Assembly (NCBI GenBank): GCA_947567595.1
Contig: CANOMQ010000033.1
Location: forward strand, 1-47,637
Source: an uncultured Lachnospiraceae bacterium
GTDB taxonomy: Bacteria; Bacillota; Clostridia; Lachnospirales; Lachnospiraceae
DNA length: 47,637 nt
Reading direction: 5' to 3'
In this document: positions 1-17,339 of the stretch, piece by piece
Layout of the letters: each line of letters opens with the position of its first letter
Numbering within the stretch: position 1 is the first letter of the stretch
Notes under the pieces: generated by a model
What the model saw: only the letters and a program-made list of their open reading frames with translations
Databases searched by the model: none
Told to the model about the DNA's origin: nothing
Position numbers and translations under genes: made by a program

Positions 1-52
1 GAGCAACGGCCTTCTAAGCCGTGGGTCGGGGGTTCGAATCCCTTCGAGCACG
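1..52 (+). tRNA. tRNA-Arg (anticodon TCT), 5' end cut by window
   Basis: The 3' part of a tRNA. The anticodon arm has loop CTTCTAA (anticodon TCT, reads AGA), followed by a variable region, a T arm (stem GGGGG, loop TTCGAAT, stem CCCTT) and the 3' acceptor strand to about position 52. The acceptor 5' strand and most of the D arm lie outside the window. CCA is not encoded. First of four closely spaced tRNA genes on this strand. Confidence 0.9.
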
Positions 53-85
53 TTTTGAGATTGAGCATGCCTTATCTCACAACAT

Positions 86-160
86 GGTGGGTATAGCACA
101 GTTGGTTAGCGCGTCAGATTGTGGTTCTGAAGGTCCTGGGTTCGAATCCCAGTACCCACC
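86..160 (+). tRNA. tRNA-His (anticodon GTG)
   Basis: Complete cloverleaf. Acceptor strands GTGGGTA and TACCCAC pair, and an extra G at 86 faces C160, the G(-1):C73 pair that identifies histidine tRNAs. The anticodon loop holds GTG and the T loop is TTCGAAT. CCA is not encoded. Lies between tRNA-Arg and tRNA-Gln in one cluster. Confidence 0.95.
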
Positions 161-164
161 TTCT

Positions 165-236
165 TGGGCTATCGCCAAGCGGTAAGGCACAGGGTTTTGA
201 TCCCTGCAGTCGCTGGTTCGAATCCAGCTAGCCCAG
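165..236 (+). tRNA. tRNA-Gln (anticodon TTG)
   Basis: Complete cloverleaf. Acceptor strands TGGGCTA and TAGCCCA pair, with discriminator G236. The anticodon stem CAGGG/CCCTG encloses loop TTTTGAT, giving anticodon TTG. It starts only four bases after tRNA-His, so the two are co-transcribed. GatCAB is encoded at 28270-31560; in bacteria lacking GlnRS it can also amidate Glu-tRNA-Gln, but this window does not show whether GlnRS is absent. Confidence 0.95.
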
Positions 237-267
237 TTTCAGTATTAATTTTCATTATATAGGATAT

Positions 268-340
268 GGGATATTAGCTCAGGTGGTAGAGCACTTGACT
301 TTTAATCAAGTTGTCCGGGGTTCGAGTCCCCGATGTCTCA
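268..340 (+). tRNA. tRNA-Lys (anticodon TTT)
   Basis: Complete cloverleaf. Acceptor strands GGGATAT and ATGTCTC pair (two G-T wobbles), with discriminator A340. The anticodon stem CTTGA/TCAAG encloses loop CTTTTAA, anticodon TTT. Last tRNA of the cluster and directly followed by a terminator. A tyrosine integrase gene points towards it from 485-1444, so its 3' end is a natural candidate attachment site, although I found no second copy of the tRNA end in the window. Confidence 0.95.
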
Positions 341-349
341 TGAAAAAAG

Positions 350-391
350 ATAGCGGAAAACCAAGTAAAATCAAGGTTTTCCGCTATTTTC
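350..391 (+). terminator. Rho-independent terminator of the tRNA cluster
   Basis: A 13-bp perfect stem (350-362 with 375-387, ATAGCGGAAAACC and its complement), a 12-base loop and a T run at 387-390. It starts ten bases after tRNA-Lys and closes the tRNA operon. Confidence 0.85.
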
Positions 392-436
392 ATCTGTATA
401 TTGTAAGTGCAAAGTAGACGATTGTAAACGGTTGTA

Positions 437-488
437 AATGACTCATTTTTGACTCACCTACGGACATAATGACTCATTTTTGACTCAC
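437..488. repeat. Direct repeats with four TGACTCA heptamers (candidate integrase arm sites)
   Basis: A 21-base sequence occurs at 437-457 and again at 468-488. Each copy holds two TGACTCA heptamers eleven bases apart (439, 450, 470, 481), so four heptamers are regularly spaced at 11, 20 and 11 bases. The second copy overlaps the stop codon of the integrase. Short repeated sites between an integrase and its tRNA target are typical of arm-type binding sites at the attachment region; that role here is inference. Confidence 0.6.
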
Positions 489-1444
489 AAAACCATTGCC
501 GCGGACACGGTTTCCGCGGGCTTTTCTTTCCCTAATATTTCATGGTTGTACACTTCGACCACCATCTTTGGCGTATCGCCTAAAAGTTCAGCGATTTTGT
601 TGATTGAGAGTGCCGGGATCTGATAACAAAGCGTGGCACAGTAGTTGTGGCGGAATATGTGCGGCGTAAGGTTTGCAATGGGTTCTTTTGACACCTTCTG
701 CATTTTCCGTATGATACGCGCCCACATTTTATCAAGCGACGATTTTGTGATATAGTTGCCGTCCTCCATATGGAAAAGGTTTGTGCACTTCAATCCTTTC
801 AGGTAATCGGCAATGACGGGATAGACCGATTCGGGAATGGGCACCGTGCGGTGCACTCTGTTCTTGGTGTCCTTGAGGTAGGGAGTGTTCACGTCGAACG
901 CTACCGCCTTATTTACGGATATTTCTTTCCGGTCGAGGGAAATATCAAACCTTGTCAAAGAAACCGCCTCTCCGCGCCTTAGACCGCACCCAAACAGTAT
1001 GTAAACAAACACCCTTTCCATAGGTGAAAAGTCTGCCAACGGTATGGCGGCTTTTTCGTGGGCGGACAGGGGACGCTTTTCGGGGGATTTGTACTTTATC
1101 TTTACACTGTCCTCAAAGATTTCATCAAGGGCAGCAGGCGCGATCAGACGGTCACGCACGGCGCTCTTAATGATTTGCTTAAATGTCATGGCTGCCTGCT
1201 GTCTTGTGCGTGCACCTTCAATATTGTTGATTGTGAACACATAGACCGCCCTGCTGACATCTCCGACGCGGCATGAAATATTGCAGAAGTGCTTTTCGAT
1301 AATGTTTTCATACATTTTTCGGGTGTTCAACGAGGCATCGGCTTTATAGAGCCTTAGCCACTCGCGGGTGTAATCAATGAATAATGCGTCGGAGTTGCGG
1401 ACAAATTCGCGCGCATTCACTTTTGCGTTAAATTCACTTACCAT
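485..1444 (-). CDS. Tyrosine-type site-specific integrase
   Basis: Tyrosine recombinase of a phage or integrative element, expected to cut and join attachment sites. The N-terminal third carries a core-binding domain (YTREWLRLYKAD onward). The catalytic domain shows all main boxes: GCGLRRGEA (first Arg), a lysine in DTKNRVHRTVPIP, HIFRHNYCATL (His-x-x-Arg) and the nucleophile in VYNH. The usual third histidine is Asp (LLGDT). The ATG at 1444 is the only normal start in the frame, but the same frame stays open for 24 codons upstream without a start codon (about 1445-1516), so an N-terminal arm-binding part may have been lost to a frameshift. The gene runs towards tRNA-Lys; no excisionase gene is seen beside it. 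Confidence 0.88.
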   Translation of the reverse strand: MVSEFNAKVNAREFVRNSDALFIDYTREWLRLYKADASLNTRKMYENIIEKHFCNISCRVGDVSRAVYVFTINNIEGARTRQQAAMTFKQIIKSAVRDRLIAPAALDEIFEDSVKIKYKSPEKRPLSAHEKAAIPLADFSPMERVFVYILFGCGLRRGEAVSLTRFDISLDRKEISVNKAVAFDVNTPYLKDTKNRVHRTVPIPESVYPVIADYLKGLKCTNLFHMEDGNYITKSSLDKMWARIIRKMQKVSKEPIANLTPHIFRHNYCATLCYQIPALSINKIAELLGDTPKMVVEVYNHEILGKEKPAETVSAAMVL

Positions 1445-1533
1445 TGTTTCAAGCTCGCGGCTGCTTTTATTTGTCCGTAGGTTTACAAGATGTTTCTTAC
1501 CGTCTTGGGTTAAAGTCTACCGTAGTCTTTTTA

Positions 1534-1547
1534 TTGCGACGTCGCAA
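1534..1547. promoter_or_regulatory. 14-bp perfect palindrome upstream of integrase
   Basis: TTGCGACGTCGCAA is a perfect palindrome about 90 bases upstream of the integrase ATG. It could be an operator or recombination-related site. It could also be coding: read on the minus strand, an AAGGAG-preceded TTG start would give LRRRNKK, which resembles the basic start of an integrase in a different frame from the main ORF. Confidence 0.35.
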
Positions 1548-1587
1548 CAAATCTTTTAAAACTCCTTGCGTCCTACTCCATGATATG

Positions 1588-1790
1588 TTATATTAGGCAC
1601 TCCACAAGCGCACGGATTACCGAAAAATCACTTACCTCCTGCGAGGCCGCATCGCCAATCCCAAAAACCCCTTCCAGCCTTTGCCGGTAAGCGCCACTCC
1701 TCCAAAAAGACAGAGGTCATCTCCAAAACCGTCTCCGTTTTTCCGTCCCGCGCCGCATACTCCAAAACCCTTGCCATTCCAAAAAGCGTT
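1588..1790 (-). pseudogene. Inverted fragment of an Hpt-type phosphotransfer region
   Basis: Read on the minus strand from about 1785, this encodes MARVLEYAARDGKTETVLEM then VFLEEWR, which looks like the later helices of an Hpt domain as found at the C-terminus of hybrid histidine kinases (LAKELEYAARDG... type). After EEWR the frame must shift once to continue as YRQRLEGVFGIGDAAS and end VIRALVECLI at a TAA (1590-1588). The adjoining plus-strand piece at 1783-1968 encodes what should follow this segment, so a stretch of about 200 bp seems to have been inverted in place. No start codon or promoter belongs to it; it is a remnant. Confidence 0.6.
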
Positions 1791-1968
1791 GCAGGAGATG
1801 GAATTTGACGCGGCGGACGAGGCGGCGGCAAAGCTGCGCGAATTTTCGTATCCCGCTGAAATTGAGGCGGATATGCAGGCGCTTTTGGAGTCGGTGACGA
1901 ATTTGGATGTGGACGAAGTGCAGCGTGTTGCGGGGAGGTTGTCGGAAGAGATGGCGAATGGTGTTTAG
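1783..1968 (+). pseudogene. C-terminal remnant of a hybrid kinase / Hpt protein
   Basis: Plus-strand reading KALQEMEFDAADEAAAKLRE then FSYPAEIEADMQALLESVTN and a short tail ending at TAG 1968. This resembles the helical tail following the Hpt domain in Lachnospiraceae hybrid kinases (LENFDFDAADE... FSYPEEI... VTNLD). The open frame extends upstream to 1681, but those residues are only the shadow of the inverted piece on the other strand. A good terminator (1986-2029) follows, so this is the original 3' end of a gene whose body has been lost. Confidence 0.6.
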
Positions 1969-1985
1969 GGGCGAAATGAAATAAA

Positions 1986-2029
1986 AAAGGACATTGCTTT
2001 TGTCATTAAGGCAGTGTCCTTTGCGTTTT
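1986..2029 (+). terminator. Rho-independent terminator
   Basis: Arms 1986-1997 and 2011-2022 pair (AAAGGACATTGC with GCAGTGTCCTTT, one G-T pair) around a 13-base loop, followed by GCGTTTTTG. It terminates the broken signalling gene and separates it from the AT-rich cluster. Confidence 0.75.
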
Positions 2030-2224
2030 TGACTGTTAATCAAGATTAATTTGTTATGTCAGTGAATCAGGCTACGTTTCATGAATAAAAAAGGAACAAT
2101 AGGTATATTAATTTGGAATAATAGGCGTATTGACGCTTTTCGTATTAAAATGTAGAATAAAAACAAGCAACGTTTTGATTATTTCACATGTTCTATTTAG
2201 AAATAAAAATAGTTTTTAAAAATA

Positions 2225-2233
2225 TGGTATAAG
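2225..2233 (+). promoter_or_regulatory. Possible extended -10 promoter of the protease/GTPase cluster
   Basis: TGGTATAAG at 2225-2233 matches an extended -10 element (TGnTATAAT, one mismatch). No good -35 is visible. It lies about 65 bases before the first gene of the cluster. The rest of the 2030-2298 gap is AT-rich and shows nothing else I can name. Confidence 0.4.
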
Positions 2234-2298
2234 AACATTTGTGGAGGCTGATATTTGAGTCTGAGTATATGTGATAATAAAGGACAGACCGAGACTGG

Positions 2299-3543
2299 AT
2301 GATTGTGGATTTGAATGAGAAAAGAAAAAAACAGGTTGAAAACATTATATGTAAAAAGGTAGCATGGCATTTTTGGCTGGTGTTAATAGTTTGGGTGATA
2401 GTCCTTTTGGTGGCAATAGTTGCGGAATGTTGTGCAAAGACAGATAGTGTTGCAAAAATGATAGGAGAAAATATTGACAAATTCTATGATTTAGTAGTCA
2501 CCATTAGTACAATACTGACTGCAGCAGTTGTGTTTTTTTATGGCATCATTGATAGTAAACGGTTGGGGGTTGCTAACCGTACGATTATTTCTTATTATGT
2601 TGGAGGATATACAATTCCAATTTGGTTTATGCTCACATTGATTAATCTACTGATTTTATGTTTGTGTATAAACGCGGAGTATGTATATGTGGCGGTTGCT
2701 GAGACCGGATATCTGTTTCTCTTGCAGCTGGGAATTATTTTTCTGATATTAATGTCAACTTCATATCGTAAACATATTAAAGCGATTTGTAAGATTGAGA
2801 AGAAGCAGCTGCTTCTTATGTTGGAGTGTGTCGAAAACGATGAGGAACCTCCATGGATATATATGGTTCATCATATGGAGAGTATAGCAGGCTCAGATAG
2901 CTTGTTTCTTGATAAATCACAGATGATTTGTGAATTATTGAAGGTTCCTTTGAAAGTAGAGAATCAAACGGGAGTGTACTGGAAGAAAGTAATTTATAAG
3001 TATTATTATCAGAATCTTTCGGAACTTTTTGGACGAATCAGTGCAGAACAGGAGTTGGAGAAAATTTATGAGATTTTATACGAATTTGCACAGGAAAATG
3101 CGCAACGCAGTTTAGACGATGAATCACGCAGTATATGCATTTTGGTTAATTCTGCGATTTTGAATGCAGCTTTGGACAGTGGAACAGTGGGAAAAAGCGG
3201 ATTTTGTAAGTGCTTTATCAATAAATATGTGAATGATGAAATGCGCAATAAGCAGATTATCTTGTTTTACCTGTTTCATGAGCTGATGTGCGGGAGGAAT
3301 ATTAATATAATTGATGAGCAAACGATAAAATCGCTAAATTTTGTTGGGGAATTGAAGGAAGAGTTAGAGGAAATGGAGGATGAATGCAGGGATTTTTGGG
3401 AAATATGGGCTGAACAGTATAGGATTTCGATAGAAACGAGCACGGTAGGTTTTTCTAATGCAATGTGTACACTGGAAGGAAAAAACCAAAAATCATATCC
3501 TATGATGTATATTAAAAATTTATTACGCAAGAAGGAGAGATAG
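2299..3543 (+). CDS. Multi-pass membrane protein, first gene of the protease-MBL-GTPase cluster
   Basis: 414 residues, family not recognised. The N-terminal 155 residues hold about four hydrophobic segments: around 22-45 (WHFWLVLIVWVIVLLVAIVA), 62-84, 98-127 and 132-152. The remaining 260 residues are hydrophilic, helical and probably cytoplasmic (KKQLLLMLECVENDEEPPW onward). The ATG at 2299 has only a weak purine-rich stretch (AAAGGA) upstream. The stop is followed after two bases by the next gene, so the two are translationally linked. In bacterial conflict systems a membrane subunit often acts as the killing effector or anchor; here that is inference from position only. Base composition is clearly more AT-rich than the pilus operon downstream. 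Confidence 0.75.
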   Translation: MIVDLNEKRKKQVENIICKKVAWHFWLVLIVWVIVLLVAIVAECCAKTDSVAKMIGENIDKFYDLVVTISTILTAAVVFFYGIIDSKRLGVANRTIISYYVGGYTIPIWFMLTLINLLILCLCINAEYVYVAVAETGYLFLLQLGIIFLILMSTSYRKHIKAICKIEKKQLLLMLECVENDEEPPWIYMVHHMESIAGSDSLFLDKSQMICELLKVPLKVENQTGVYWKKVIYKYYYQNLSELFGRISAEQELEKIYEILYEFAQENAQRSLDDESRSICILVNSAILNAALDSGTVGKSGFCKCFINKYVNDEMRNKQIILFYLFHELMCGRNINIIDEQTIKSLNFVGELKEELEEMEDECRDFWEIWAEQYRISIETSTVGFSNAMCTLEGKNQKSYPMMYIKNLLRKKER

Positions 3544-3545
3544 CG

Positions 3546-4412
3546 TTGGTTATTCGGAGAATTCAGCTGAAAAACAACCTGTATTTGGATAAGGAGCAGG
3601 ATAAGGACGATCAGAATTCTAAACCATTAGGGGAGTACTGTACATTTGGATATTTTGACGCGATGAGTATTGACAAGAAAGTGGGGAAAAACTTAGGGGT
3701 TTGGCAGGTACTGAGCGAAGGCATTATTGGTGAAATAGATGGCAGTTGTTCGGTTCGCAGTCTGTTATGTGTATCGGGTGACGAGAAAAAGGACAAGGAG
3801 TTTTGGGAGATAGATCCAAAGATTGAAGCCTATCCGCTGCTGTTTGTATCAGTTATCCGTTTGAAAGAATCAATGGATGGCGTTGCTGTGAAGGCTGAAA
3901 TGGACGAATTGAATAAGTGTAAAACGAAAATTGCATATTTTTCTTATGAACATAGTGAATTGATTACATTTTATAAGACAAAAAAATTTTCAGACGGACA
4001 TGACTTCTGCCATGATTTACATAAAAAGTTTGAAATTTATAAGATGTATACAATATTTTCGGTAAAAGAAGAAACGTTAGTATCATATGATAGAATAAAA
4101 CAGGAAATAATAGATGAGAAAGTGGACTGTCGGCTTCGGGCAATTGTAAAAGACAGGGAAAAAATTCATGAAATAAAAGAAAAACTTGAGAATGCTTTGA
4201 AAGAAGACACCGTTTGTAATCCGTTCATTTTGGAGTATCATATGATGGGGAATTCGGATGTAATGTTTGAACTCAATGGCATATCAATTCAAAAACTGCT
4301 AGCCTGCTACAAAACGAATGAATTGCTTACACATTCAAACACAGATTACCAGAAAGCATTCTATAACGTTGAGACGGAAATTCTATGGGTGGAGGAACCA
4401 AATGCAGGTTGA
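3546..4412 (+). CDS. Unknown cytoplasmic protein with possible repeated alpha/beta modules
   Basis: 288 residues, TTG start at 3546 supported by AAGGAGAG seven bases upstream; no signal peptide or membrane segment. Three stretches share a strand-turn-strand look with an aromatic/Asp pattern: CTFGYFDAMSIDK (about 32-44), IAYFSYEHSELITFYKTKKF (about 129-148) and EYHMMGNSDVMFELNG (about 231-246), each following a helix-strand run. This suggests tandem ferredoxin-like modules, such as those found in ligand-sensing or nucleotide-cyclase-like folds, but no catalytic signature is visible. Its end overlaps the next start by 11 bases (ATG 4402, stop 4410-4412). A sensor or adaptor role is a guess. Confidence 0.7.
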   Translation: MVIRRIQLKNNLYLDKEQDKDDQNSKPLGEYCTFGYFDAMSIDKKVGKNLGVWQVLSEGIIGEIDGSCSVRSLLCVSGDEKKDKEFWEIDPKIEAYPLLFVSVIRLKESMDGVAVKAEMDELNKCKTKIAYFSYEHSELITFYKTKKFSDGHDFCHDLHKKFEIYKMYTIFSVKEETLVSYDRIKQEIIDEKVDCRLRAIVKDREKIHEIKEKLENALKEDTVCNPFILEYHMMGNSDVMFELNGISIQKLLACYKTNELLTHSNTDYQKAFYNVETEILWVEEPNAG

Positions 4413-5997
4413 GTGGATTAAAAAAAATATTGTTGATTTGAAAAAGCTTTATGAAAAAAGCGCAGGAGAGCAGGCGTTATCTTCTTATATTATTTCCGTT
4501 ATAAGATTATTGAATGGAATGGTACAAATTGCGAATGGAGGATTTCACAGATATGAACGGATTATTTTGGGTAAAGCCATAAAGTTATTTTGTGAACATT
4601 TTCAGGAACAGGTACAATGTGCATTGGATTGTGTGGATGATGTCAGGGAGAAGAATGAAATCATTTTGGATATAGAGGATGCAGTTATGCAGATTGCTCA
4701 GGTTTACAAAAATGTAATTGACAGTACAGCAAATGCAGATAAAAGAATGTTCATGAGTCTGGCGGTGGATACAAGCTTATATGAGTTTTCGCCAAAGCTA
4801 TGCGGATTGTACGCACATGTGTTGGAACAGCTGGTAATTTTAATGGATGTGTCAGGGACGGGGCAGCCGGATTATGCCTTTTTGATACATCCTACGCTGG
4901 AAAGCAATATTAAGGCGAAGGTACTTTTCAAGAAGAGAGAAAATTCCGGAAAGGTGGTAGTGGTTTACATTCCTGTCAATATTCTTGATCAGACTGATTT
5001 GATTCCTGTTATAGCATTACATGAGGCATTTCATGTCCTCACAAAAAAAGAAAGAGAGCGTAAATACCGCGCAAGGCTGCTGATGAGAGTGATGCTGCTC
5101 GGAATGGAAGATTATCTGTTTGGTGATGTGATATTGTGTGAAGACGATAAAAACCTTGACCGCAGGAGAAAAAGTCAATTGATGGAGATATGGTTTGGAA
5201 AAATTAGAGACGATTTTATGCGGGAATGTAATGAGTTGAATGAGGATAATCGTTGTTGGTATGGCGAAAAACTGCTCCAGAATGTTACTAGGAAATTAAT
5301 AGAGGGATTACGGTGCGCAATAGAGTTTTTGGAACAAAGTAAGTTTATTGAGCTATATATTGGCGAAACAGGTAATGGGTTTAAAAAATGTGTGGAAGAG
5401 TATCAGAACATGAGTGAGAAAAGTATGTATATTTTAAGAAATATGCATAAGGTCATTATAGGTGATACACTTTATAAGATGCTTGACCGTTATATTCATA
5501 TTCTACAGGAGGCATACGCGGATGTTGCCTGCATTGTTATTGCCCAGCTGAAACCAGAGTTGTATGATATGGCATTTGAGTGTTCTGTACAATTTAAAAC
5601 GCAGAAAAAATATTTTAAAGACGAGGATCGTGAAATGCGTCGGATGCTTGTTTATGATACGGTTATATTTTATTCAGAAGAGCTTGGACAACAATGGCGT
5701 GAGAATAAGATAAAAAAACATGATGACGATTCTGAGTTTGGAAATTTATGGTTTTATGATGAAAATATGCTGAATATAGCTAGACAAAACAGGGAAAAAT
5801 GTGTTAAAATACCTATGGTATACTTGGGGTGTTTGGATTACTTGGGGAAATGTATACAAAATTTACAGATTATAGCTCAAAACCCCGAGATCGATAAGTT
5901 TCGTAAGAAACTGAATGGTATAATGGCAGATCGGGACGATGTAGTATTAAAAATTTTAGGAGGCGTGGAGGTAGAAAATGAAACGGACTATTGTTGA
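4402..5997 (+). CDS. HExxH zinc metalloprotease (gluzincin-like), cluster component
   Basis: 531 residues from the ATG at 4402, chosen because GGAGG lies seven bases upstream and the longer reading start at 4318 sits deep inside the previous gene. The centre carries a zincin active site: ALHEAFHVLTKKERER gives HEAFH at residues 207-211, and EAYADVACI at about 370-378 offers the distal glutamate ligand plus an Asp, the gluzincin pattern. The N-terminal 200 residues and the C-terminal third are helical and unrecognised. No signal peptide is seen, so it probably acts in the cytoplasm. Within this cluster a second protease (trypsin-like, 7448-10159) is encoded, suggesting a proteolytic activation scheme. 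Substrate unknown. Confidence 0.75.
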   Translation: MQVEWIKKNIVDLKKLYEKSAGEQALSSYIISVIRLLNGMVQIANGGFHRYERIILGKAIKLFCEHFQEQVQCALDCVDDVREKNEIILDIEDAVMQIAQVYKNVIDSTANADKRMFMSLAVDTSLYEFSPKLCGLYAHVLEQLVILMDVSGTGQPDYAFLIHPTLESNIKAKVLFKKRENSGKVVVVYIPVNILDQTDLIPVIALHEAFHVLTKKERERKYRARLLMRVMLLGMEDYLFGDVILCEDDKNLDRRRKSQLMEIWFGKIRDDFMRECNELNEDNRCWYGEKLLQNVTRKLIEGLRCAIEFLEQSKFIELYIGETGNGFKKCVEEYQNMSEKSMYILRNMHKVIIGDTLYKMLDRYIHILQEAYADVACIVIAQLKPELYDMAFECSVQFKTQKKYFKDEDREMRRMLVYDTVIFYSEELGQQWRENKIKKHDDDSEFGNLWFYDENMLNIARQNREKCVKIPMVYLGCLDYLGKCIQNLQIIAQNPEIDKFRKKLNGIMADRDDVVLKILGGVEVENETDYC

Positions 5998-6175
5998 GAA
6001 CACGAGCGGATTGTGGGAACGAATCCCGCATAGGGATATCGAGATTTCGGTGGGGAGTAATTACCAACGACGGGATTACAGTTGTTTCTACGAAGTCGGT
6101 TCATCGTCTGAAGCACCATTATGGGGAAGCCATGTGGTGGAGGAAAGTCCGTTTATTAAATCTTTTGATCCATGA
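5978..6175 (+). CDS. Small hypothetical ORF, possibly frameshifted
   Basis: A 65-codon frame starts at ATG 5978 with an excellent site (GGAGGT five bases upstream) and overlaps the end of the metalloprotease gene. It reads MKRTIVENTSGLWERIPHRD onward. A second frame through the same bases gives GVITNDGITVVSTKSVHRLK and runs to TAG at 6222-6224; joining the first 26 codons to it would make an about 82-residue protein, so this may be a small gene with a frameshift. I recognise neither reading. The rest of the gap to 6410 holds a hairpin (6225-6259) and AT-rich DNA. Confidence 0.3.
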   Translation: MKRTIVENTSGLWERIPHRDIEISVGSNYQRRDYSCFYEVGSSSEAPLWGSHVVEESPFIKSFDP

Positions 6176-6224
6176 GTTGAGCAAGTGTGTTTTAGGGGCT
6201 GTCGGAAAATGGCAGTTAAAGTAG

Positions 6225-6263
6225 AGGAGGCAGGGACTCGAAATGAGTTAATGCCTCCTTTAT
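6225..6263 (+). terminator. Possible terminator or attenuator hairpin inside the cluster
   Basis: AGGAGGCA (6225-6232) pairs with TGCCTCCT (6252-6259) around a 19-base loop; the T tract afterwards is interrupted. It separates the first half of the cluster from the MBL and trypsin-GTPase genes, so partial readthrough is likely if all belong to one system. A TATAAT-like -10 (6335-6340) lies downstream without a clear -35. Confidence 0.4.
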
Positions 6264-6410
6264 GCTTTTACAAGAAAATGATGCTCTGGTCTATACACTG
6301 AAAAAGTGATGGAGGAATTAGATTACAATCCAATTATAATGTATGCTGTAGTTAAGGAATGAAAGCAATTTTACTAAGATGAAAGATAAATTCATGGAGG
6401 ATATAAGAAA

Positions 6411-7442
6411 ATGACAGTACATATGCTTAGAGCGCGTAATGGAGATGCTTTTGTTATACAACATAAAGACTCCAAAGGAAAAGCTCATAATCTTATTATA
6501 GATGGTGGTCCGGCAGGCGCCTATAAAAATGAATTAAAACAGTTATTTGAAACCGTTAATAAAGAGGGAATCGATGCTGTAATTTTGACGCATGCAGATG
6601 ACGATCATATTGGCGGAATACTTAAATTTTTTTCACAGACGCAAACACTGAATGTGGGGAAGGTATATTACAATAGTGCAAGACTGTTGGCGTGTAAGCT
6701 TGGTATAGAGGCAGATAAGAAGAATGAGTTATTGCTTGACATGAGCGATGTAAATCATAGTTACAGACAGATGGTTTCACTCGAAGATGTATTATGTCAA
6801 AAAGGTATTGATAAAAACACTAACCTGATTTGTGATGATAGCCAGAACATTAAAATTGGCGATATTGAATTGGAGATACTCTCGCCAACTAAGGAGCAAC
6901 TGAAGAAGCTTGGCAGAAAGTGGGAAAGAGAACAATACCTAGAAACAGATAATGGGGGAAAGTTGTCAGATCATAAAAAGAAAATAAGAGACTTATGGGA
7001 TAATTTGGAGCAACCGGAAAATACAATTACAAATGATTCAAGCATTGCTTTTTTACTGAAATATAAGCAGGATATTATTTTGTTTATGGGTGATGCCAAT
7101 CCGGAAACGATACAAAATGCTTTAGCTAACCGGGGATATAAGATAGATAATAAAATAAGATTATCTTATATGAAATTGTCCCATCATGGAAGCAGGCATA
7201 ATATTACGACAGAGCTGCTGGACATGATTGAATGTAATAAATATTTGATATCAACAAATGGGACAAGACATGGTCATCCAGACAAAGAAACGCTTGCCAA
7301 GATAATTAAGAATAGGAGTAATAGTGATGATAAGATATATTTTTATTTTAACTATGAGTATGGAGACATAATAACAGAAGAAGAGATGAAAAAATATAAT
7401 GTTGTGTGTGAAGTTAAGAGAAAATTTGAGATAGGAGGTTGA
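6411..7442 (+). CDS. ComEC/Rec2-like metallo-beta-lactamase fold hydrolase
   Basis: 343 residues with GGAGG ten bases before ATG 6411. The fold starts with MTVHMLRARNGDAFVI and LIIDGGP, then the metal motif LTHADDDHIGGI. The second histidine of HxHxDH is Asp, as in the MBL domain of competence protein ComEC. Later come LFMGDANPETIQNAL and MKLSHHGSRHN, the remaining metal ligands of this subgroup. It lacks the membrane channel of ComEC, so it is a stand-alone cytoplasmic enzyme, likely a nuclease or phosphodiesterase, with substrate unknown. The stop (7440-7442) falls five bases before the ATG of the trypsin-GTPase gene, so the pair is co-translated. Protease plus MBL pairs are known from bacterial conflict systems, as I recall; the exact set here I do not recognise. 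Confidence 0.85.
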   Translation: MTVHMLRARNGDAFVIQHKDSKGKAHNLIIDGGPAGAYKNELKQLFETVNKEGIDAVILTHADDDHIGGILKFFSQTQTLNVGKVYYNSARLLACKLGIEADKKNELLLDMSDVNHSYRQMVSLEDVLCQKGIDKNTNLICDDSQNIKIGDIELEILSPTKEQLKKLGRKWEREQYLETDNGGKLSDHKKKIRDLWDNLEQPENTITNDSSIAFLLKYKQDIILFMGDANPETIQNALANRGYKIDNKIRLSYMKLSHHGSRHNITTELLDMIECNKYLISTNGTRHGHPDKETLAKIIKNRSNSDDKIYFYFNYEYGDIITEEEMKKYNVVCEVKRKFEIGG

Positions 7443-7447
7443 TTAAG

Positions 7448-10159
7448 ATGAATGAAAACATCGTAAAGGTACAGTTGGGGGATATGAGGGGTACTGGTAT
7501 TGTTATTTATTCGGATGAGGATAACTTTGCAGTAATAGTGACCGCGGGGCATTGTTTGAAAAATGCAGGTGATGATTTTAAAAATATTGAAATTGTGGGA
7601 CATAAAGGATGCGAGGTTATTAACTGTATTGTGGCAAAAGAAGCGGATGCAGCGTTTCTGATATGCAGAGGCTTCCTTTATCAAGAAGTTTTATGGAAAA
7701 TGCAGGATAGTGTTATTGAGCATATAACATGTGCATGTGTAAAGGGATTTCCGATAAACAAAGAATCAGATAAGGACGAATATGAAGTAGAATTCACGGA
7801 CATAAAATTTTATAAAGAAAAAAATCAACGTGTAGGGAAGCTTAACGAGGACATTGGCGAGGAAAAATCAAGTTTGATGAATGGTATGTCCGGTTCACCG
7901 GTATATGATAGAGAGAGCATGGAACTGTATGGCATGTATTTAGGTTCACTTGAAAAAAACTATAATTATAATGAGAACAGAATATTACCTGTTCATGTAA
8001 TACTCCGGCTGGCTCGGAAATATGACGTAATCTATTTAAAGAAAGCTACAAATAAGATAGGGCTATACAATAAGTGTAAGTATTTAAGTATAGGACAAAG
8101 CGCTCCTTTGGATTTAAGGAAATATAAGGAGCTAAATTTTTTGTTATTGGGGAAGAGCGGTAACGGAAAATCAGCATTTATTAAAAGCTTTTTGAAACAT
8201 AAGGATTTAATCCATTCCACAGGTGAAGGACGAACAACTCGAATTAACTGCGAATATAAAATAATATATGGGGATTACGAAGATGATAAAAAACCTTGTG
8301 TCACTATTGAATTTTATGATAAAAGTAATTTTGCGGATAGAAGATGGAGTATGCTTGAAGATAAAATAAACGGGTTGGGGAATTCCTGTGAAGCTGATGA
8401 TATGTTCCAGTACCTTTGTTATGATGAAGGCTTTTTTTCAATAGATGAGTTTGATGATGAAATTCAGGAGGAAATACAAAATCTGTTTGATGAAATTTTT
8501 AAGGCAGATGAGAGCAATAAGATAGAGATTAAAGTTTGTGAGGAGGAAGATTTACACGATATTCGTGTTTTGGTGAACAATTTTTATGAACAAACCATAA
8601 GTTTATTAAAAGACAAATTAAGTTTAAAGAAAAAAGTTATTGATTTGGAAAACTATACTCAGGAAGAAATTGATTTTTTAGATTTGTGCATTCATGAAGT
8701 GAGAGATAGGACTTATGCAGGATTAGTTGAAAAGATAGAGGTATATGACAGGATTTGTGATGAATACTGTCAAGTTTGTGATGAATTAAAAATTGATAAC
8801 ATATTATTAGTAGATACATATGGGCTTGACCACGTCAATGATGATGATAAAAACAGGGTAGATCAACGTTTATATGATTTAATATGTGTCGAATATGAAA
8901 AGATAAAGAATGTATTATATATACGAAAGCTGAATTCGGATTCGCCGAATGATTTGGAATACTATCTGCCTGCCTTATATAAGATAGACCCGAACGTCAT
9001 ATTGAATGTAGTCTTTACGGAAATAGATAAAAATGATTATATTAACAATCAATGTGATGAAAGCACAGATATAAACTTGATAGAATTTGCTCAAAAGGGT
9101 TTTATTAATAGCAAATCAGTTAAATATTTTATAGAAAAAGAAAATAATATAAGATGTAAAAAGAAAAATGAGCTTAAGCAGGCGATACAGAATGGTGTGA
9201 AAAGTGAGTTATATGCGGAAGCGATTTTTGAATATATTCTTAAATATTTGACTCCTTATTGTGCAGCGGAAGGAGAAATAGATGATAAATATCTCGTCAA
9301 TAATTGTAATAAAGTTAAGAGGTTATTTAATGCAATAATAAACGAGGAATATCGGGGAAATGGCATTATAAATCTAAAAAGATGCAGAGAGAATCTTGAA
9401 GGCGGGCTAAAAAAGAGGGAGGGCGAATGTTATACGGTTTTTAAGGGGCTGATAGCCGAGATGTTTAAGGATGCAGATATCGGATGGGGAGTTTCTAATT
9501 ATCACAGAGGGCATTGGAAAACAAAGCAGGCGAATATTACATGTATTCAGAGATTGGAACTTGGGTACTGCGGTACACATGATGACAGATGGAGTAGCAG
9601 CTTTAAGCAGGCGTATTTCAAGCTTTTTTCCACGATGGATAAAGAGCGGTTTAAAAAGATGTTTGGTGAGGAAAAGGAAACAAACAGCGGTATTTCTATA
9701 CAGATGATTTTAAACGCATTTATTACGAAGATGGTAGGCTGTGAAAAAAATTCGCGAGATTCTTTCTGGAGTCAAAAGGATCGATGCTCGGGATGTGGAT
9801 ATAACTGTTTTAAAAAAAAACTGCTGAATGCTTATGAGGAAAATGAATTAACCAATAATGCTGTACAAACGCGTGAAGGGTGGTTAAATGCGCGTACTAA
9901 CTTTAAAAAGCGCTTTGAGAATCATGAAGAAGAGTTCTTAGATTATTTCACGGATGCTTTTTTGGAAATTATGTTTGAATTTGAAAAGCACAATTTAAAT
10001 AAGATTGAGAAGACATTGAAGGATGGGGGAGAGAAAGAAAATTTTGACGAACATTTAAAGGAGATAAAGATACAAATGCAAAATCTTTTCAAAAATGAAT
10101 GTGAGATGAAAGATGAAATAGCATTATATATGGGAGAGAGCTACAAGAGTTTGAACTAG
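7448..10159 (+). CDS. Trypsin-like serine protease fused to a P-loop GTPase
   Basis: 903 residues from ATG 7448 (AGGAGG nine bases upstream; a TTG at 7439 is less likely). Domain 1 (1-190) is a trypsin-like protease with the full triad: His35 in VTAGHCL, Asp67 in EADAAFL, Ser148 in GMSGSPVY. No signal peptide, so it is intracellular. Domain 2 (about 228-600) is a GTPase: Walker A GKSGNGKS at 235-242, a switch-I-like GRTTRINCEYK, G3 motif DTYGLDH at 456-462 and a G4-like FTEIDK; a long acidic helical insert separates the first motifs, as in dynamin/GIMAP-like GTPases. The C-terminal part is helical with a CSGCGYNC cysteine cluster at 780-787. Nucleotide state may gate proteolysis of a partner such as the neighbouring metalloprotease or membrane protein (inference). 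Last gene of the AT-rich cluster. Confidence 0.87.
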   Translation: MNENIVKVQLGDMRGTGIVIYSDEDNFAVIVTAGHCLKNAGDDFKNIEIVGHKGCEVINCIVAKEADAAFLICRGFLYQEVLWKMQDSVIEHITCACVKGFPINKESDKDEYEVEFTDIKFYKEKNQRVGKLNEDIGEEKSSLMNGMSGSPVYDRESMELYGMYLGSLEKNYNYNENRILPVHVILRLARKYDVIYLKKATNKIGLYNKCKYLSIGQSAPLDLRKYKELNFLLLGKSGNGKSAFIKSFLKHKDLIHSTGEGRTTRINCEYKIIYGDYEDDKKPCVTIEFYDKSNFADRRWSMLEDKINGLGNSCEADDMFQYLCYDEGFFSIDEFDDEIQEEIQNLFDEIFKADESNKIEIKVCEEEDLHDIRVLVNNFYEQTISLLKDKLSLKKKVIDLENYTQEEIDFLDLCIHEVRDRTYAGLVEKIEVYDRICDEYCQVCDELKIDNILLVDTYGLDHVNDDDKNRVDQRLYDLICVEYEKIKNVLYIRKLNSDSPNDLEYYLPALYKIDPNVILNVVFTEIDKNDYINNQCDESTDINLIEFAQKGFINSKSVKYFIEKENNIRCKKKNELKQAIQNGVKSELYAEAIFEYILKYLTPYCAAEGEIDDKYLVNNCNKVKRLFNAIINEEYRGNGIINLKRCRENLEGGLKKREGECYTVFKGLIAEMFKDADIGWGVSNYHRGHWKTKQANITCIQRLELGYCGTHDDRWSSSFKQAYFKLFSTMDKERFKKMFGEEKETNSGISIQMILNAFITKMVGCEKNSRDSFWSQKDRCSGCGYNCFKKKLLNAYEENELTNNAVQTREGWLNARTNFKKRFENHEEEFLDYFTDAFLEIMFEFEKHNLNKIEKTLKDGGEKENFDEHLKEIKIQMQNLFKNECEMKDEIALYMGESYKSLN

Positions 10160-10349
10160 AATGTATGGGGGTAATTTTTATAGAAAGGATTTTCCATGTA
10201 GGGATGCTATATTGATTATAATAAAAGATGCTGGAATTTGCTGGTTACATAAGGGGTTTACATATTGTATATGACTACAAAAATGTCTTAAAATGTCCTA
10301 AAAAAACCGTGCAAAATACATGAAATGTGCATAAAAATGTGTAAAAAGA

Positions 10350-10378
10350 TTGTAGTTTTGTGCAGGTTGAATTATAAT
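10350..10378 (+). promoter_or_regulatory. SigA-type promoter of the pilus operon
   Basis: TTGTAG (10350-10355), 17-bp spacer, TATAAT (10373-10378). Transcription would start near 10385, about 190 bases before the pilin ATG. The gap 10160-10349 before it is AT-rich and shows no clear terminator for the upstream cluster. Confidence 0.65.
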
Positions 10379-10384
10379 GTATAC

Positions 10385-10577
10385 GGATAGAGCCGCAGTT
10401 GTACCACTTTTGTATACGTGGGTTTCGCGTGCCTGCTTAGGAAGACGCCTTTTTGGGTGGTGTGTACGGGGGGCAGCGGGGCGGTATGTGCAGTGATGTA
10501 TGGAATGGATACATATTGGTACGGCGATTGTGCGGACGCAATCACAAATATATTATGAAAAAGGAGAAGTGAGTCCA
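10385..10577 (+). promoter_or_regulatory. Long structured 5' leader of the pilin mRNA
   Basis: About 190 untranslated bases, noticeably G-rich in the middle (10456-10484). Two clear hairpins are visible: ATGTAT (10496-10501) with ATACAT (10509-10514), and GATTGTG (10526-10532) with CGCAATC (10537-10543) closed by a CGGA tetraloop. CCAC/GTGG and GCGT/ACGC pairings are possible further upstream. It may be a cis-regulatory RNA; I could not match it to a cyclic-di-GMP riboswitch consensus, the class that controls pili in other clostridia. Confidence 0.45.
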
Positions 10578-11018
10578 ATGAACAATTTAAAGGAACAGAA
10601 AATGAATAACAAAGGTTTCTCCCTTGTGGAGTTAATCATTGTTATTGCAATTATGGCAGTGCTGATTGGTGTGCTTGCACCTCAGTATTTGAAGTATGTT
10701 GAGAAGTCAAGACAGTCAGCAGATCTTGATAATGTAGACTCTATACTTTCAGCGGTTACAACTTATTCAGCAGATCCTGCTAATCAATTGGTAATTGGTC
10801 ATGTAACATGTGCTTCAGGTGTTGTGACAGCAGATGGTGCAGTAGGAACAAAAGGTGACGTGAAAGACGCTTTAAATGAAGCAGGAATTAATCTCCCAAC
10901 AACTGCATTAATGAAGAGCAAAGCATATCAAGCATGGGATATTGAATTTAAGCCAGATGGTACTATGGCATTTACAGGTACTAATGGTCCAGCTTTACAA
11001 ACGGCATTGGGACATTAA
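10578..11018 (+). CDS. pilA: Type IV major pilin
   Basis: 146 residues from ATG 10578, with AAGGAG upstream; an internal ATG at 10602 is an alternative. The class III signal peptide ends MNNKG, followed by FSLVELIIVIAIMAVLIGVL, so cleavage after Gly leaves an N-methylated Phe and the Glu5 needed for assembly. After the N-terminal helix (YLKYVEKSRQSADLDNVDS) comes a small globular domain with two threonine/glycine-rich strands. It is the first gene of an operon encoding its peptidase and the assembly proteins PilMNO. No sortase or cell-wall motif. The subunit is expected in a cell-surface filament used for twitching, adhesion or DNA uptake. Confidence 0.9.
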   Translation: MNNLKEQKMNNKGFSLVELIIVIAIMAVLIGVLAPQYLKYVEKSRQSADLDNVDSILSAVTTYSADPANQLVIGHVTCASGVVTADGAVGTKGDVKDALNEAGINLPTTALMKSKAYQAWDIEFKPDGTMAFTGTNGPALQTALGH

Positions 11019-11062
11019 TCATAATTGCGTGTTAATAATTAAAGATTGAAAGGACACACCAA

Positions 11063-11833
11063 ATGCTCCCAACTATACTTTTATCAATCATCATATTCCT
11101 CTACGGAATCACAATCGGCAGTTTCCTCAACGTATGCATCTGCCGGTTGCCCAAAAAAGAAAATATAGTCACAACAAGAAGCCACTGCACAAGCTGCGGA
11201 ACCCAACTGAACTGGTATGACCTCATACCCCTGTTCAGTTGGGTGGCTTTGGGAGGAAGGTGTCGCAAGTGTAAGGCACGGATATCCGTTCAGTACCCGA
11301 TTATCGAGGCACTGAACGGGGTTCTGTGGCTTACCATATTTTTCGTCTGTGGCGTTAGCATTGAGACAGCACTCTACTGTATTATGGCAAGTGCGCTTCT
11401 TGCACTCTCCGTCATAGACTTTCGGACATACGAAATCCCGTTTGGGTTTAACTTGATTATCGCAGCGCTCGGGCTGATACGTGTACTGACAGATTTACCG
11501 AACTGGACAGCATATGTTATCGGCTTTTTTGCAGTCAGCGTGCCCCTGTACCTGCTCTATGCGGTCACAAAGGGGCGGGCAATCGGCGGCGGCGATATTA
11601 AGCTGATGGCGGCGGCAGGGCTGCTTTTGGGGTGGCAGCGCGTGATACTGGCGTTTGTAATCGGGTGCGTTTTAGGCTCCGTGATTCATGTCATTCGTAT
11701 GCGTGTTGCACAGGCTAAGGGTTCGGCGGCGGAGCATATGCTTGCGATGGGACCATACCTTTCCGCAGGAATTTTTATCGCGGCGCTTTGGGGCGGGCGG
11801 CTGATTGCGTGGTATCTTGGTTTTTACCAGTAA
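11063..11833 (+). CDS. pilD: Prepilin peptidase / N-methyltransferase (A24 family)
   Basis: 256 residues. Integral membrane aspartyl protease that cleaves prepilins after Gly and methylates the new N-terminus. The N-terminal part has the start motif GSFLNVCICRLPK and a four-cysteine zinc site (CTSC and CRKC) typical of the bifunctional enzymes. The catalytic aspartates are in SVIDFRTYEIP and in the GxGD motif GRAIGGGDIKLMAA. About seven hydrophobic segments. AAAGGACACACC precedes ATG 11063. Its substrates are clearly the pilin and the four pseudopilins of the same operon. A large inverted repeat follows it before pilM. Confidence 0.93.
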   Translation: MLPTILLSIIIFLYGITIGSFLNVCICRLPKKENIVTTRSHCTSCGTQLNWYDLIPLFSWVALGGRCRKCKARISVQYPIIEALNGVLWLTIFFVCGVSIETALYCIMASALLALSVIDFRTYEIPFGFNLIIAALGLIRVLTDLPNWTAYVIGFFAVSVPLYLLYAVTKGRAIGGGDIKLMAAAGLLLGWQRVILAFVIGCVLGSVIHVIRMRVAQAKGSAAEHMLAMGPYLSAGIFIAALWGGRLIAWYLGFYQ

Positions 11834-11842
11834 AGAAAACAA

Positions 11843-11906
11843 AGTGCCTATTTCCTATAGTCCCATTTGGCAAAAAACGGAAATGGAGCTATAGGAAATA
11901 AGCGCT
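11843..11906 (+). repeat. Long imperfect inverted repeat between pilD and pilM
   Basis: Arms TATTTCCTATAG (11849-11860) and CTATAGGAAATA (11889-11900) pair perfectly, followed inward by CCATTT/AAATGG and outward by AGTGC/GCGCT (one wobble). The 12-base loop is GGCAAAAAACGG. No T run follows, so it is not a classical terminator. It could be an mRNA-processing or stability element, a partial terminator, or a small repeat of the host genome. Confidence 0.6.
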
Positions 11907-11933
11907 GTAAGGTGCAAATGGAGGGAAAACAAC

Positions 11934-13508
11934 ATGGCAAAAGTACTAAGCATAGAGATTGGCTTTTCAACGATTAAGATTGTTGAGATGGATCATCAGA
12001 AGAAAAAGCCAAAGGTTTACCGGTGCGTGGAGACCAAGACACCGGACGGGGCAATTCGGGACGGCTATCTCAACCCTGACAAAATGGAGGCATTGAAGGA
12101 GCAAATCCGTGACGCCCTGCGGGAGCATAAAATCCGTACCAAGCGCGTGCTTTTTACTGTTTTTTCAACAAAAATCATCAGCCGTGAAATTACGGTTTCG
12201 GCGGTGAAGGAGCATCAGATTGGTGCGTTTATCGAGTTGAACATTACCGAGTATTTTCCGATTGAGCTGACGGATTACAAGATTGCCCATTTCATCATAC
12301 AGACATACCGTGACGGGGAAAACGCGGGGAAGCACAAGGTGCTTGTCATGGCGGCAGAGAAGTCGCTTTTGGAAGGGTATGAAAAGCTTGCGCAGGAGCT
12401 CGGGCTTTTTATCGCGGATATTGATTACATCGGAAATTCGGTCATTCAGGCAACGCGCATGAATGCCGGCGCGGAAGCGATTATGACGGTGAAGGTCGAG
12501 GAGGAGAACGCGCTTGTTACGATTCTTCGGCAGAGTACGATGATGATGCAGCGAACCGTCAATTATCAGGTGGGGCATATGGACGATGATGTGCTCCCTG
12601 ACAAGGACGAGCGCAATGAGATATTGACCGGAACAGTCACCCGACTGATTGACTTTTATTCGGCGAACAATGAGGACAGCAAGATTTCACAGATTTATAT
12701 TATCGGTGACGGCTCGCGCGACTGGTCCATTACGGAATTAATGACACAGCAGACCGGCGTTCCCAGCCGTTTCTTGGAGAATGTGCGTGCGACGACGATT
12801 ACGCGCCGTGCGGACAACAACATGATGAACGTGTTTGCAACGGCAATCGGTGCGGGCGTAAGGAGCGTGGGCTTTGACGCGGAGAAGGAGAAGGAGCGGC
12901 ACGAGACGAATTATGTTTCGGCGTGTATCCTAGTCATTATTTTGTTTATCGTGCTGATTGGCGCGGTGCTTTCGATGGCGCTTGTTCCTTATAATACGGC
13001 GCTCACGGAGCAGAGCTCTTTGCAGCGGCAAAAAGAGCAGCTTGAGCCGGCAAGGCTTGTGCATGACCAGTATCTTGGCTTGAAGGATTTTATTGAGCAG
13101 GTTCGCTATGGAAACAGGCTGACAGAGCATTTTAATGATGGTATTATTGCATTTTTTGAGGAGCTTGAGATGAATCTGCCTTCGGATGTGGAAATGACGG
13201 ACTTTTCTTCTGACGATGAGCAGTGCGTCATGACAATCCGCGTGGGCGATAAGGAGACGGCGGCAGGAATTATCAAGATGCTGCGTGATTTTGAGTCGCT
13301 TGAGAGCGTGACGGTTGAGAGCCTGATTGAGGAGGTTACCGAGGATTCGCTTGAGGGGATTATGGTAGAGACCTTGCAGGGCAATGAAGTGAAAACGGTT
13401 AATTTTACGGTGACGTGTACATACAGGACTGAGGTTTTGACACCGCCTGTACCTGCGATGCAGCCTCCTGCTGCGGATGGCACTGCGGACGCGGCAACGA
13501 CGGAATAA
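11934..13508 (+). CDS. pilM: PilM-PilN fusion, type IV pilus assembly protein
   Basis: 524 residues, AATGGAGGG upstream of ATG 11934. Residues 1-320 are an actin-like PilM ATPase (MAKVLSIEIGFSTIKIVEMD at the start, YIIGDGSRD and FATAIGAGVRS later). A membrane segment follows at about 328-350 (SACILVIILFIVLIGAVLSM), then a coiled stretch and a PilN-like alpha/beta domain (EELEMNLPSDVEMTDF, MTIRVGDKETAAGIIKML), with a proline/alanine-rich end. PilM and PilN are normally separate proteins, PilM docking onto the cytoplasmic tail of PilN; here they are one chain. The next gene is PilO-like, so this encodes the inner-membrane alignment complex. Confidence 0.85.
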   Translation: MAKVLSIEIGFSTIKIVEMDHQKKKPKVYRCVETKTPDGAIRDGYLNPDKMEALKEQIRDALREHKIRTKRVLFTVFSTKIISREITVSAVKEHQIGAFIELNITEYFPIELTDYKIAHFIIQTYRDGENAGKHKVLVMAAEKSLLEGYEKLAQELGLFIADIDYIGNSVIQATRMNAGAEAIMTVKVEEENALVTILRQSTMMMQRTVNYQVGHMDDDVLPDKDERNEILTGTVTRLIDFYSANNEDSKISQIYIIGDGSRDWSITELMTQQTGVPSRFLENVRATTITRRADNNMMNVFATAIGAGVRSVGFDAEKEKERHETNYVSACILVIILFIVLIGAVLSMALVPYNTALTEQSSLQRQKEQLEPARLVHDQYLGLKDFIEQVRYGNRLTEHFNDGIIAFFEELEMNLPSDVEMTDFSSDDEQCVMTIRVGDKETAAGIIKMLRDFESLESVTVESLIEEVTEDSLEGIMVETLQGNEVKTVNFTVTCTYRTEVLTPPVPAMQPPAADGTADAATTE

Positions 13509-13521
13509 TGGGAGGATTGAC

Positions 13522-16688: not shown

Positions 16689-16723
16689 AAAGTTTGATGG
16701 CGGAAAGGAGGAAGCCACGGCTT

Positions 16724-17269: not shown

Positions 17270-17339
17270 CAGATTTTTGCAGTTATTTGTTGATTGGATT
17301 GGTAAAAAGCAAAGTTCGTTTGGGAAAGAGTTGGGTATT

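What the first reader, a model, noticed from the sequence alone, without database searches (positions are those of the whole stretch)
2299..10159. Candidate undescribed conflict system: membrane protein, possible alpha/beta-repeat protein, HExxH protease, ComEC-like MBL, trypsin-GTPase
Two independent protease folds, a metallo-beta-lactamase and a GTPase are packed in one AT-rich, tightly spaced cluster near a tRNA-linked integrase, unlike the housekeeping genes around it. The parts fit a scheme in which nucleotide binding unlocks the trypsin domain, which cleaves and activates the metalloprotease, MBL or membrane protein. Protease-MBL pairs have been reported in bacterial immunity (from memory), but I do not recognise this five-part combination.
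Basis: partly seen in the sequence, partly recalled or inferred. Interest (0 to 1): 0.85.

Follow-up and report, generated by a model that had tools for sequence, protein, structure and literature searches.

The report
Two adjacent protease-based defence candidates
What looked like one five-gene immune machine in a bacterium is more likely two neighbouring protease systems: a GTPase-linked version of a known self-destruct DNA-cutter switch, and a less familiar metalloprotease cassette whose relatives often carry a signal-making enzyme instead of the membrane protein seen here.

Summary
The five genes exist as described, but the evidence is against one five-part system. Module B (MBL 6411-7442, trypsin-GTPase 7448-10159) recurs without module A; in 7 of 7 loci where that flank is present an MBL gene adjoins the trypsin/GTPase, and two of these loci lie beside known defence genes (Gabija; type I restriction and NsnA). 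B belongs with the pro-nuclease/trypsin pairs of Hachiman, AVAST, Lamassu and DRT (Tuck et al. 2025), here with a GTPase-like domain in the sensor position; my searches found no description of that. Module A (membrane protein p1, p2, HExxH protein p3) recurs without B. p2 and p3 are fused in 12 of 17 loci. In all 17 the next gene is a membrane protein (9, including the window) or a DisA-type (DAC) cyclase protein (8; 4 above Pfam's cut-off). HExxH is kept in 17 of 17. A and B shared only the window's own genome in paired surveys of 98, 397 and 398 genomes, and a 413-base gap with a stable hairpin separates them. Best reading: two independent abortive-defence modules. B's mechanism is inferred from tested homologues; A's is speculative.

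The parts
2299..3543 (+). Module A, p1: membrane protein, four N-terminal hydrophobic stretches and a C-terminal soluble part
   Evidence: frame; hydropathy; blastp relatives in the same position in L013, L037, L010; no Pfam family above cut-off
3546..4412 (+). Module A, p2: predicted alpha/beta protein of unknown family, fused to p3 in 12 of 17 loci
   Evidence: weak internal repeat; no family hit
4402..5997 (+). Module A, p3: predicted zincin metalloprotease, HExxH (207-211) and ExxxD (370-374)
   Evidence: HExxH in 17 of 17; ExxxD in 16 of 17 by a pattern drawn from the alignment, and read as EIYPD in the 17th, L040; weak Peptidase_M48 similarity in 3 of 19 rows
6223..6261 (+). Terminator-like hairpin between modules A and B, followed by a short T-rich tail
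   Evidence: fold of 6185-6300, z = -5.26, 0 of 200 shuffles as stable; not listed by the simple terminator scan
6411..7442 (+). Module B, p4: MBL-fold predicted pro-nuclease, THxDxDH motif, insertion loop with Ile192
7448..10159 (+). Module B, p5: N-terminal trypsin-like protease, P-loop GTPase-like domain, long C-terminal region (alternative TTG start at 7439)

Best explanation
Two separate defence-type modules lie side by side. Module B (p4-p5): the GTPase-like domain senses infection or is switched by a partner, brings p5 copies together, and so activates the fused trypsin domain. That domain cuts a gating loop of the MBL protein p4, turning an inactive pro-nuclease into a DNase that destroys DNA and stops the infected cell. 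Shown here: gene pairing, intact catalytic motifs, homology to the tested pairs. Inferred: sensing, oligomerisation, cleavage, DNA degradation. Module A (p1-p2-p3): p3 is a zinc metalloprotease held in check by, or directed through, p2. On a cue it acts on, or releases, the membrane protein p1, giving membrane damage and growth arrest. In sister systems a diadenylate-cyclase-type protein takes p1's place next to p2-p3, so p2 may read a nucleotide or another small ligand. Shown here: the recurring cassette, the exchange of partners, the conserved metal-site motifs. Inferred: everything about function.
For: Separation: p5 relatives in 3 of 98 genomes and p3 relatives in 4 of the same 98, shared only in the own genome; 4 and 13 of 397, again only own; 2 and 1 of 398, only own. 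B without A: G017 has MBL + trypsin-GTPase and, upstream, a gene that reads as a MATE-type transporter, with no p3 match in that genome. A without B: G003, G007, G010. Spacing: 2 bases and an 11-base overlap inside A, 5 bases (or an overlap) inside B, 413 bases with a hairpin between. B: MBL adjacent in 7 of 7 loci where that flank exists (window, L004, L034, L035, L036, L061, L093); in an eighth, L005, the contig ends inside p5. THxDxDH, trypsin His, GxSGxP Ser and P-loop are kept in 7 of 7. L061 is followed by GajA 3.6e-206 and GajB 2.6e-214; L093 lies between a type I restriction protein 4e-145 (1.5 kb upstream, two short frames between) and NsnA 4e-61. Mechanism shown for Hachiman and AVAST pairs (PMC12799240). 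A: in 17 of 17 loci the next gene to p2-p3 is a membrane protein (9) or DAC-type (8); SLATT_5 in L039; HerA beside the closest relative L013, AbiLi near L040, AriA near L043. A DAC is essential in a validated phage-defence system, DS-2 (PMC13092281).
Against: No activity was tested. Absence from other genomes rests on samples and on single-sequence or small profiles with few candidates scored per genome; many genomes are incomplete. Defence neighbours were seen in a minority of loci and without a random-locus control. The MBLs of L034, L035 and L036 lack the second insertion loop, so gating may differ within the family. The GTPase-like domain matches no family above cut-off; in L061 the PADLOC LmuA protease model aligns over residues 4-464, past the trypsin, so kinship with Lamassu's LmuA beyond the trypsin is not excluded. 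Only 3 of the other 8 membrane partners (L013, L037, L010) match p1 by blastp; the rest share position and hydropathy only. DAC relatives elsewhere (3 plasmid, 4 viral-contig loci viewed) have no p2-p3 beside them (0 of 7), so the DAC is not specific to this protease. The window's module A has no cyclase. Because A and B adjoin in this genome, cooperation here is not strictly excluded.
Confidence: 0.62

Rival explanations
1. One five-gene system: nucleotide binding unlocks the trypsin, which activates metalloprotease, MBL and membrane protein.
For: Adjacency and same strand in the window; similar low G+C across both modules.
Against: Each module recurs alone and they share no other genome in three paired surveys; 413-base gap with a hairpin; each module has its own recurrent partners.
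Confidence: 0.06
2. Module B is a Lamassu or AVAST type 1 system, or a derivative that has lost the other genes of one.
For: p4 scores best against PADLOC LmuA (4.2e-98); p5's trypsin region hits an LmuA protease model (2.2e-14), and in L061 that match runs to residue 464 (3.1e-22); plasmid MBL relatives sit beside Lamassu-type ABC-three-component genes and beside Avs1.
Against: The GTPase-like domain recurs with MBL and trypsin; no SMC or STAND gene was recognised in the window cluster and none of the frames read around the relatives suggested one, though those flanks were not all scanned; p4 scores 206.6 bits against a cut-off of 420 for NCBIfam Avs1a.
Confidence: 0.08
3. Module A is a housekeeping or stress-response membrane protease cassette, not defence.
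For: Many A loci lie among genes that read as ordinary; the cyclase partner could serve general c-di-AMP signalling.
Against: Patchy: 13 of 397 family genomes and only the own genome of 398 phylum-wide; high divergence; partner exchange; HerA, AbiLi, AriA and SLATT near four loci, without a control for background.
Confidence: 0.25

Closest known systems
Nuclease-protease pairs of Hachiman, AVAST type 1, Lamassu and DRT (Tuck et al. 2025, PMC12799240; parts 1-3 of 6 of the text read)
   Same: MBL-fold predicted pro-nuclease immediately upstream of a trypsin domain fused to the N-terminus of another enzyme; catalytic motifs and one insertion-loop Ile present in the window
   Different: The fused partner is a P-loop GTPase-like domain with a long C-terminal region. 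The words GTPase, dynamin and P-loop were not found in that paper's held main text; its supplement, which shows further loci, could not be seen.
Lamassu with hydrolase-protease effectors (PADLOC LmuA models)
   Same: Best PADLOC match for p4 and for p5's trypsin region
   Different: No SMC-type ATPase or middle component recognised in the window cluster; a GTPase-like domain instead
DAC-containing CBASS (DefensePredictor DS-2, PMC13092281; passages read)
   Same: Diadenylate cyclase in a defence operon; 8 of 17 relatives of module A have a DAC-type partner
   Different: Partner is a HExxH protein, not a CD-NTase plus phospholipase; the window copy has a membrane protein and no cyclase
GTPase-centric GAP1 conflict systems (Kaur et al. 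2020, PMC7159879; passages read)
   Same: GTPases, peptidases and SLATT-type effectors in mobile operons
   Different: No GAP1, GASH or FNIII component recognised beside p5; my term searches of that paper found no 'lactamase'

Membership tests
Nuclease-protease pairs (module B) | MBL-fold hydrolase with intact metal motif | tested here: met
   THxDxDH and HHG[SA] in 7 of 7 loci; ComEC/competence proteins as sequence matches in the PDB
Nuclease-protease pairs (module B) | MBL gene directly upstream of a trypsin domain fused N-terminally to another enzyme | tested here: met
   Adjacency in 7 of 7 loci; fused in 6, while in L034 the trypsin is a separate gene before the GTPase
Nuclease-protease pairs (module B) | Active-site gating insertions with conserved cleavage Ile | tested here: inconclusive
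   Second-loop Ile192 aligned in window, L004, L049, L050, L051, L052; Val in L054; loop absent in L034-L036. No conserved Ile seen in the first loop. No structure available.
Nuclease-protease pairs (module B) | Proteolytic activation of a DNase | not testable with these tools
   Needs biochemistry
Lamassu | SMC-type LmuB (and LmuC) in the operon | tested here: not met
   No such hit among p1-p5
AVAST type 1 | STAND NTPase Avs1b/Avs1c, and Avs1a above the curated score | tested here: not met
   p4 206.6 bits, cut-off 420; no STAND hit in p5
GAP1 GTPase-centric systems | GAP1 protein beside the GTPase | tested here: inconclusive
   No such hit in p1-p5, but whether Pfam holds GAP1 models was not checked
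Zincin metalloproteases (module A, p3) | HExxH with a downstream acidic ligand motif | tested here: met
   HExxH in 17 of 17; ExxxD in 16 of 17 by pattern and read as EIYPD in L040; that ExxxD supplies the third ligand is recalled from gluzincins, not shown
Zincin metalloproteases (module A, p3) | Profile match to a known peptidase family | tested here: not met
   Peptidase_M48 in 3 of 19 rows, best E 0.029, below cut-off; no PDB sequence relative that covers the HExxH region
Nucleotide-signalling (DAC/CBASS-like) systems (module A) | Nucleotide cyclase in the operon | tested here: not met
   None recognised in the window cassette; DAC-type partner in 8 of 17 loci

The most novel reading that the evidence does not exclude
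Module A is the membrane-protein branch of an undescribed immune type in which a HExxH metalloprotease, not a nuclease or phospholipase, is the output of a dedicated sensor. One branch is driven by a DisA-type cyclase making c-di-AMP or a relative (with a SLATT membrane protein in one case). The other, including the window, has a four-helix membrane protein in the cyclase's place that is the protease's switch or target. Next to it, module B adds a GTPase to the known triggers of the pro-nuclease/trypsin cascade.
Probability: 0.3. Interest if true: 0.8.

Novelty: new variant of a known kind. Interest (0 to 1): 0.6.

Why it matters
Module B would extend a tested immune mechanism, proteolytic activation of a DNase, to a GTPase-like trigger, so GTP-dependent sensing in bacterial immunity becomes testable with a two-gene construct. 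Module A links an uncharacterised metalloprotease family to diadenylate cyclases and membrane proteins by consistent gene pairing, giving a concrete candidate for a protease output of nucleotide signalling. The case also shows that adjacency in one genome can suggest a cascade that comparison takes apart.

Tried and rejected
Five-part system: disfavoured by the co-occurrence surveys and the spacing. Mobile element with tRNA-Lys attachment sites: searched for direct repeats in 60-12000 and for a second copy of the tRNA-Lys 3' end in the window, found none; in G010 and G004 the tRNA cluster and the pilin operon lie on different contigs, and in the own genome the genes that follow tRNA-Lys in those relatives are on another contig with no tRNA found in the 19 kb fetched, so the flanks look rearranged and the insertion history is unresolved. 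A further gene in the gap 5998-6410: short frames only, no convincing relative among the fetched loci. Plasmid collection: no p5 or p3 relatives, nor any for the L061 homologue of p5; phage collection: no p5 relatives (p3 not tried); viral contigs: one p5 relative, none for p3 or the fused L012 protein. p2 as a clear tandem repeat: not significant. DAC relatives outside the family as carriers of p2-p3: 0 of 7 viewed. Literature: DACNH as a whole word gave 0 papers, and as a word start one unrelated paper; combined searches for GTPase/trypsin/MBL defence and for DisA/metalloprotease defence gave 0; some searches gave, in the rows listed (15 of 39, 15 of 28), nothing on either module beyond the papers cited. 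Of these papers I read PMC12799240 parts 1-3 of 6 and passages of PMC13092281 and PMC7159879; the rest are listings. PMC10127676 (on DAC architectures) is not held. The library holds open-licence papers only, so this is weak evidence of absence. No control for defence-gene density around random loci was made.
Full report
What is there. Five frames on the plus strand fill 2299-10159: p1 (membrane protein), p2, p3 (HExxH), p4 (MBL) and p5 (trypsin plus P-loop domain). p5 more likely starts at ATG 7448 than at TTG 7439: the relative L004 has a Met at the same place, and a GGAGG lies at a suitable distance. The region is 32-38% G+C. The host is related to Lachnospiraceae: a same-genus genome (G003, contig of 76,604 bases) and the record of 'Lachnospiraceae bacterium UBA7179' (contig of 76,604 bases) carry the same locus; that the two are one genome is my inference.

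The modules come apart. In 98 relatives, p5 matches occur in 3 (own, G014, G017) and p3 matches in 4 (own, G003, G007, G010). In 397 genomes of the family the counts are 4 and 13; in 398 genomes of the phylum 2 and 1. In all three pairs the only shared genome is the window's own. The queries differed in sensitivity (single sequence or small alignments), few candidates were scored per genome, and the samples overlap, so these are lower bounds, not frequencies. p1, p2 alone and p4 were not surveyed in genomes. G017 has MBL and trypsin-GTPase with a gene that reads as a MATE-type transporter upstream; G003, G010 and G007 have the A genes and no p5 match. Between p3 and p4 lie 413 bases with a stable hairpin at about 6223-6261 (z = -5.26 for the 116-base stretch; the simple terminator scan did not list it).

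Module B. p4 matches PADLOC LmuA (4.2e-98), RTasMBL (1e-67) and Avs1a (1.6e-47); p5 residues 3-194 match an LmuA protease model (2.2e-14). In the relative L061 that model aligns over residues 4-464 (3.1e-22), past the trypsin, which leaves open some kinship of the following region with LmuA. The GTPase-like domain (GxSGxGKS, a conserved TTR, DTxGLD) has no family match above cut-off; weak hits of relatives to mad8 (best 3.2e-5) and of the profile to Toc34 in the PDB (E 0.061) cover the P-loop region. Eight loci with the GTPase were found: window, L004, L005, L034, L035, L036, L061, L093. In the seven where the flank exists, an MBL gene adjoins; L005 is cut by the contig end. MBL, trypsin and P-loop motifs are kept in all seven; DTxGLD is seen in six, and L004 ends before it. 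L061 is followed by complete Gabija genes. L093, a viral-collection contig, has a type I restriction protein 1.5 kb upstream, with two short frames between, and an NsnA-like protein downstream. Flanks of the other relatives were read as frame lists only. In plasmids, 86 records hold MBL relatives; of six neighbourhoods viewed (H1, H2, H5, H8, H12, H14), two have Lamassu-type ABC-three-component genes, and one each Avs1, a serine protease, a caspase-family protein and a NACHT protein.

How B probably works. Tuck et al. show that HamM and Avs1a are gated pro-nucleases that need cleavage by their partner trypsin at isoleucines in insertion loops; for Hachiman, replacing HamA by a dimerisation domain makes the protease toxic, so oligomerisation is the proposed trigger. 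p4 has a second loop with Ile192, conserved in L004 and L049-L052, Val in L054, and the loop is missing in L034-L036; I see no conserved Ile in the first loop. So cleavage at one loop is the simplest prediction for the window, and it may not hold for the whole family. GTPase was not found in the held main text of that paper; its supplement, which shows further loci, could not be seen.

Module A. p2-p3 relatives occur at 17 distinct loci (13 including the window; G003, G007 and G010; L013; L014 duplicates G003 and was dropped). p2 and p3 are separate in the window, L010, L013, L037 and L042 (in L042 the raw match crosses two stop codons, so that split may be a break) and fused in the other 12. 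HExxH is kept in 17 of 17, ExxxD in 16 of 17 by a pattern drawn from the alignment, with EIYPD in the last. The next gene on the same strand is a membrane protein in nine (window, L010, L011, L012, L013, L037, L040, L042, L044) and DAC-type in eight (L038, L039, L041, L043, L045, L046, L047, L048). By blastp only the partners of L013, L037 and L010 match p1; common descent of all nine is not shown. Of the eight DAC-type, four have a Pfam DAC and/or DACNH hit above cut-off (L039, L041, L045 both; L046 DAC), three only below it (L038, L043 both domains; L048 DACNH), and L047 was recognised only by a profile built here from the other seven (5.5e-47). The partner lies upstream in 15 and downstream in two (L045, L048). 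The motif IDGA is present or nearly so (D and G invariant in the seven aligned); the segment I recall as RHR in classical cyclases reads R-x-N-S, so activity and product are open. A tree of 15 p3 sequences needs two changes between partner types and places the window with L013, L037 and L010 (100/100), all membrane-protein types; several branches are long and flagged as unsafe (L042 and L047 were not in the tree).

Context of A. L013, the closest relative (37% identity), follows an HD-domain protein, a 292-aa protein without a hit, and a HerA ATPase (4.7e-32). L040 lies near an AbiLi-like protein (4.1e-66), L043 one gene from an AriA-like ATPase (5.1e-36), and L039 has a SLATT_5 protein directly downstream (3.8e-10). 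The neighbours scanned in L012, L037, L044 and L047 gave no hit; the remaining loci were read as frame lists. There is no random-locus control. DACs are established in defence: the DAC of DS-2 is essential for protection. Relatives of the L039 DAC occur on 6 plasmid records; of three viewed, one lies beside a patatin-like phospholipase and a nucleotidyltransferase, one beside restriction-type genes and one beside neither. None of these three, nor of four viral-contig relatives, has p2-p3 nearby (0 of 7): the cyclase type is shared with other systems, the pairing with p2-p3 was seen only in the family set.

Verdict. I rate the two-module reading as strong (about 0.85), B's mechanism as likely (about 0.75), and A as a defence system as more likely than not (about 0.6), with its mechanism open.

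Noticed in passing
window 21776-22705 and 23144-24073: Two tandem 309-aa frames, identical at 302 of 310 positions with the stop counted, in a low-G+C stretch; they look like a recent duplication.
   Followed up: partly
window 10500-21509: Run of genes that read like type IV pilus or pseudopilus genes (prepilin-type starts, a prepilin-peptidase-like protein); 11063-13508 is 83% identical in G010.
   Followed up: partly
window 1-341 and 10228 onward: The tRNA cluster and the pilin operon that flank the cluster here are on different contigs in G010 and G004, and genes that follow the tRNA in those relatives are on another contig of the own genome.
   Followed up: partly
L082 9694-11605: Upstream of the same pilin operon, G010 carries a defence-like ATPase (HEC-02A, NsnB and AriA-type hits) followed by a 230-aa protein without a hit; this flank may be a hotspot.
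   Followed up: partly
L040 12142-13008: A further MBL protein (PADLOC PDC-M48B 6e-19) about 2.4 kb from module A genes, beyond the AbiLi-like gene.
   Followed up: partly
L034 6318-7136 and 7114-9387: Trypsin and GTPase are separate overlapping genes here, unlike the fusion in the window.
   Followed up: yes
window 5978-6224: Short overlapping frames between the modules with no convincing relatives among the fetched loci; possibly a decayed small gene.
   Followed up: partly
L011 26-4272: In G010 module A lies a little downstream of genes that read like phage-tail or contractile-injection components; not examined.
   Followed up: no
L095 766-4076: In a viral-collection contig a DAC relative lies downstream of a gene that reads like a CD-NTase, in line with the published DAC-CBASS association.
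   Followed up: partly
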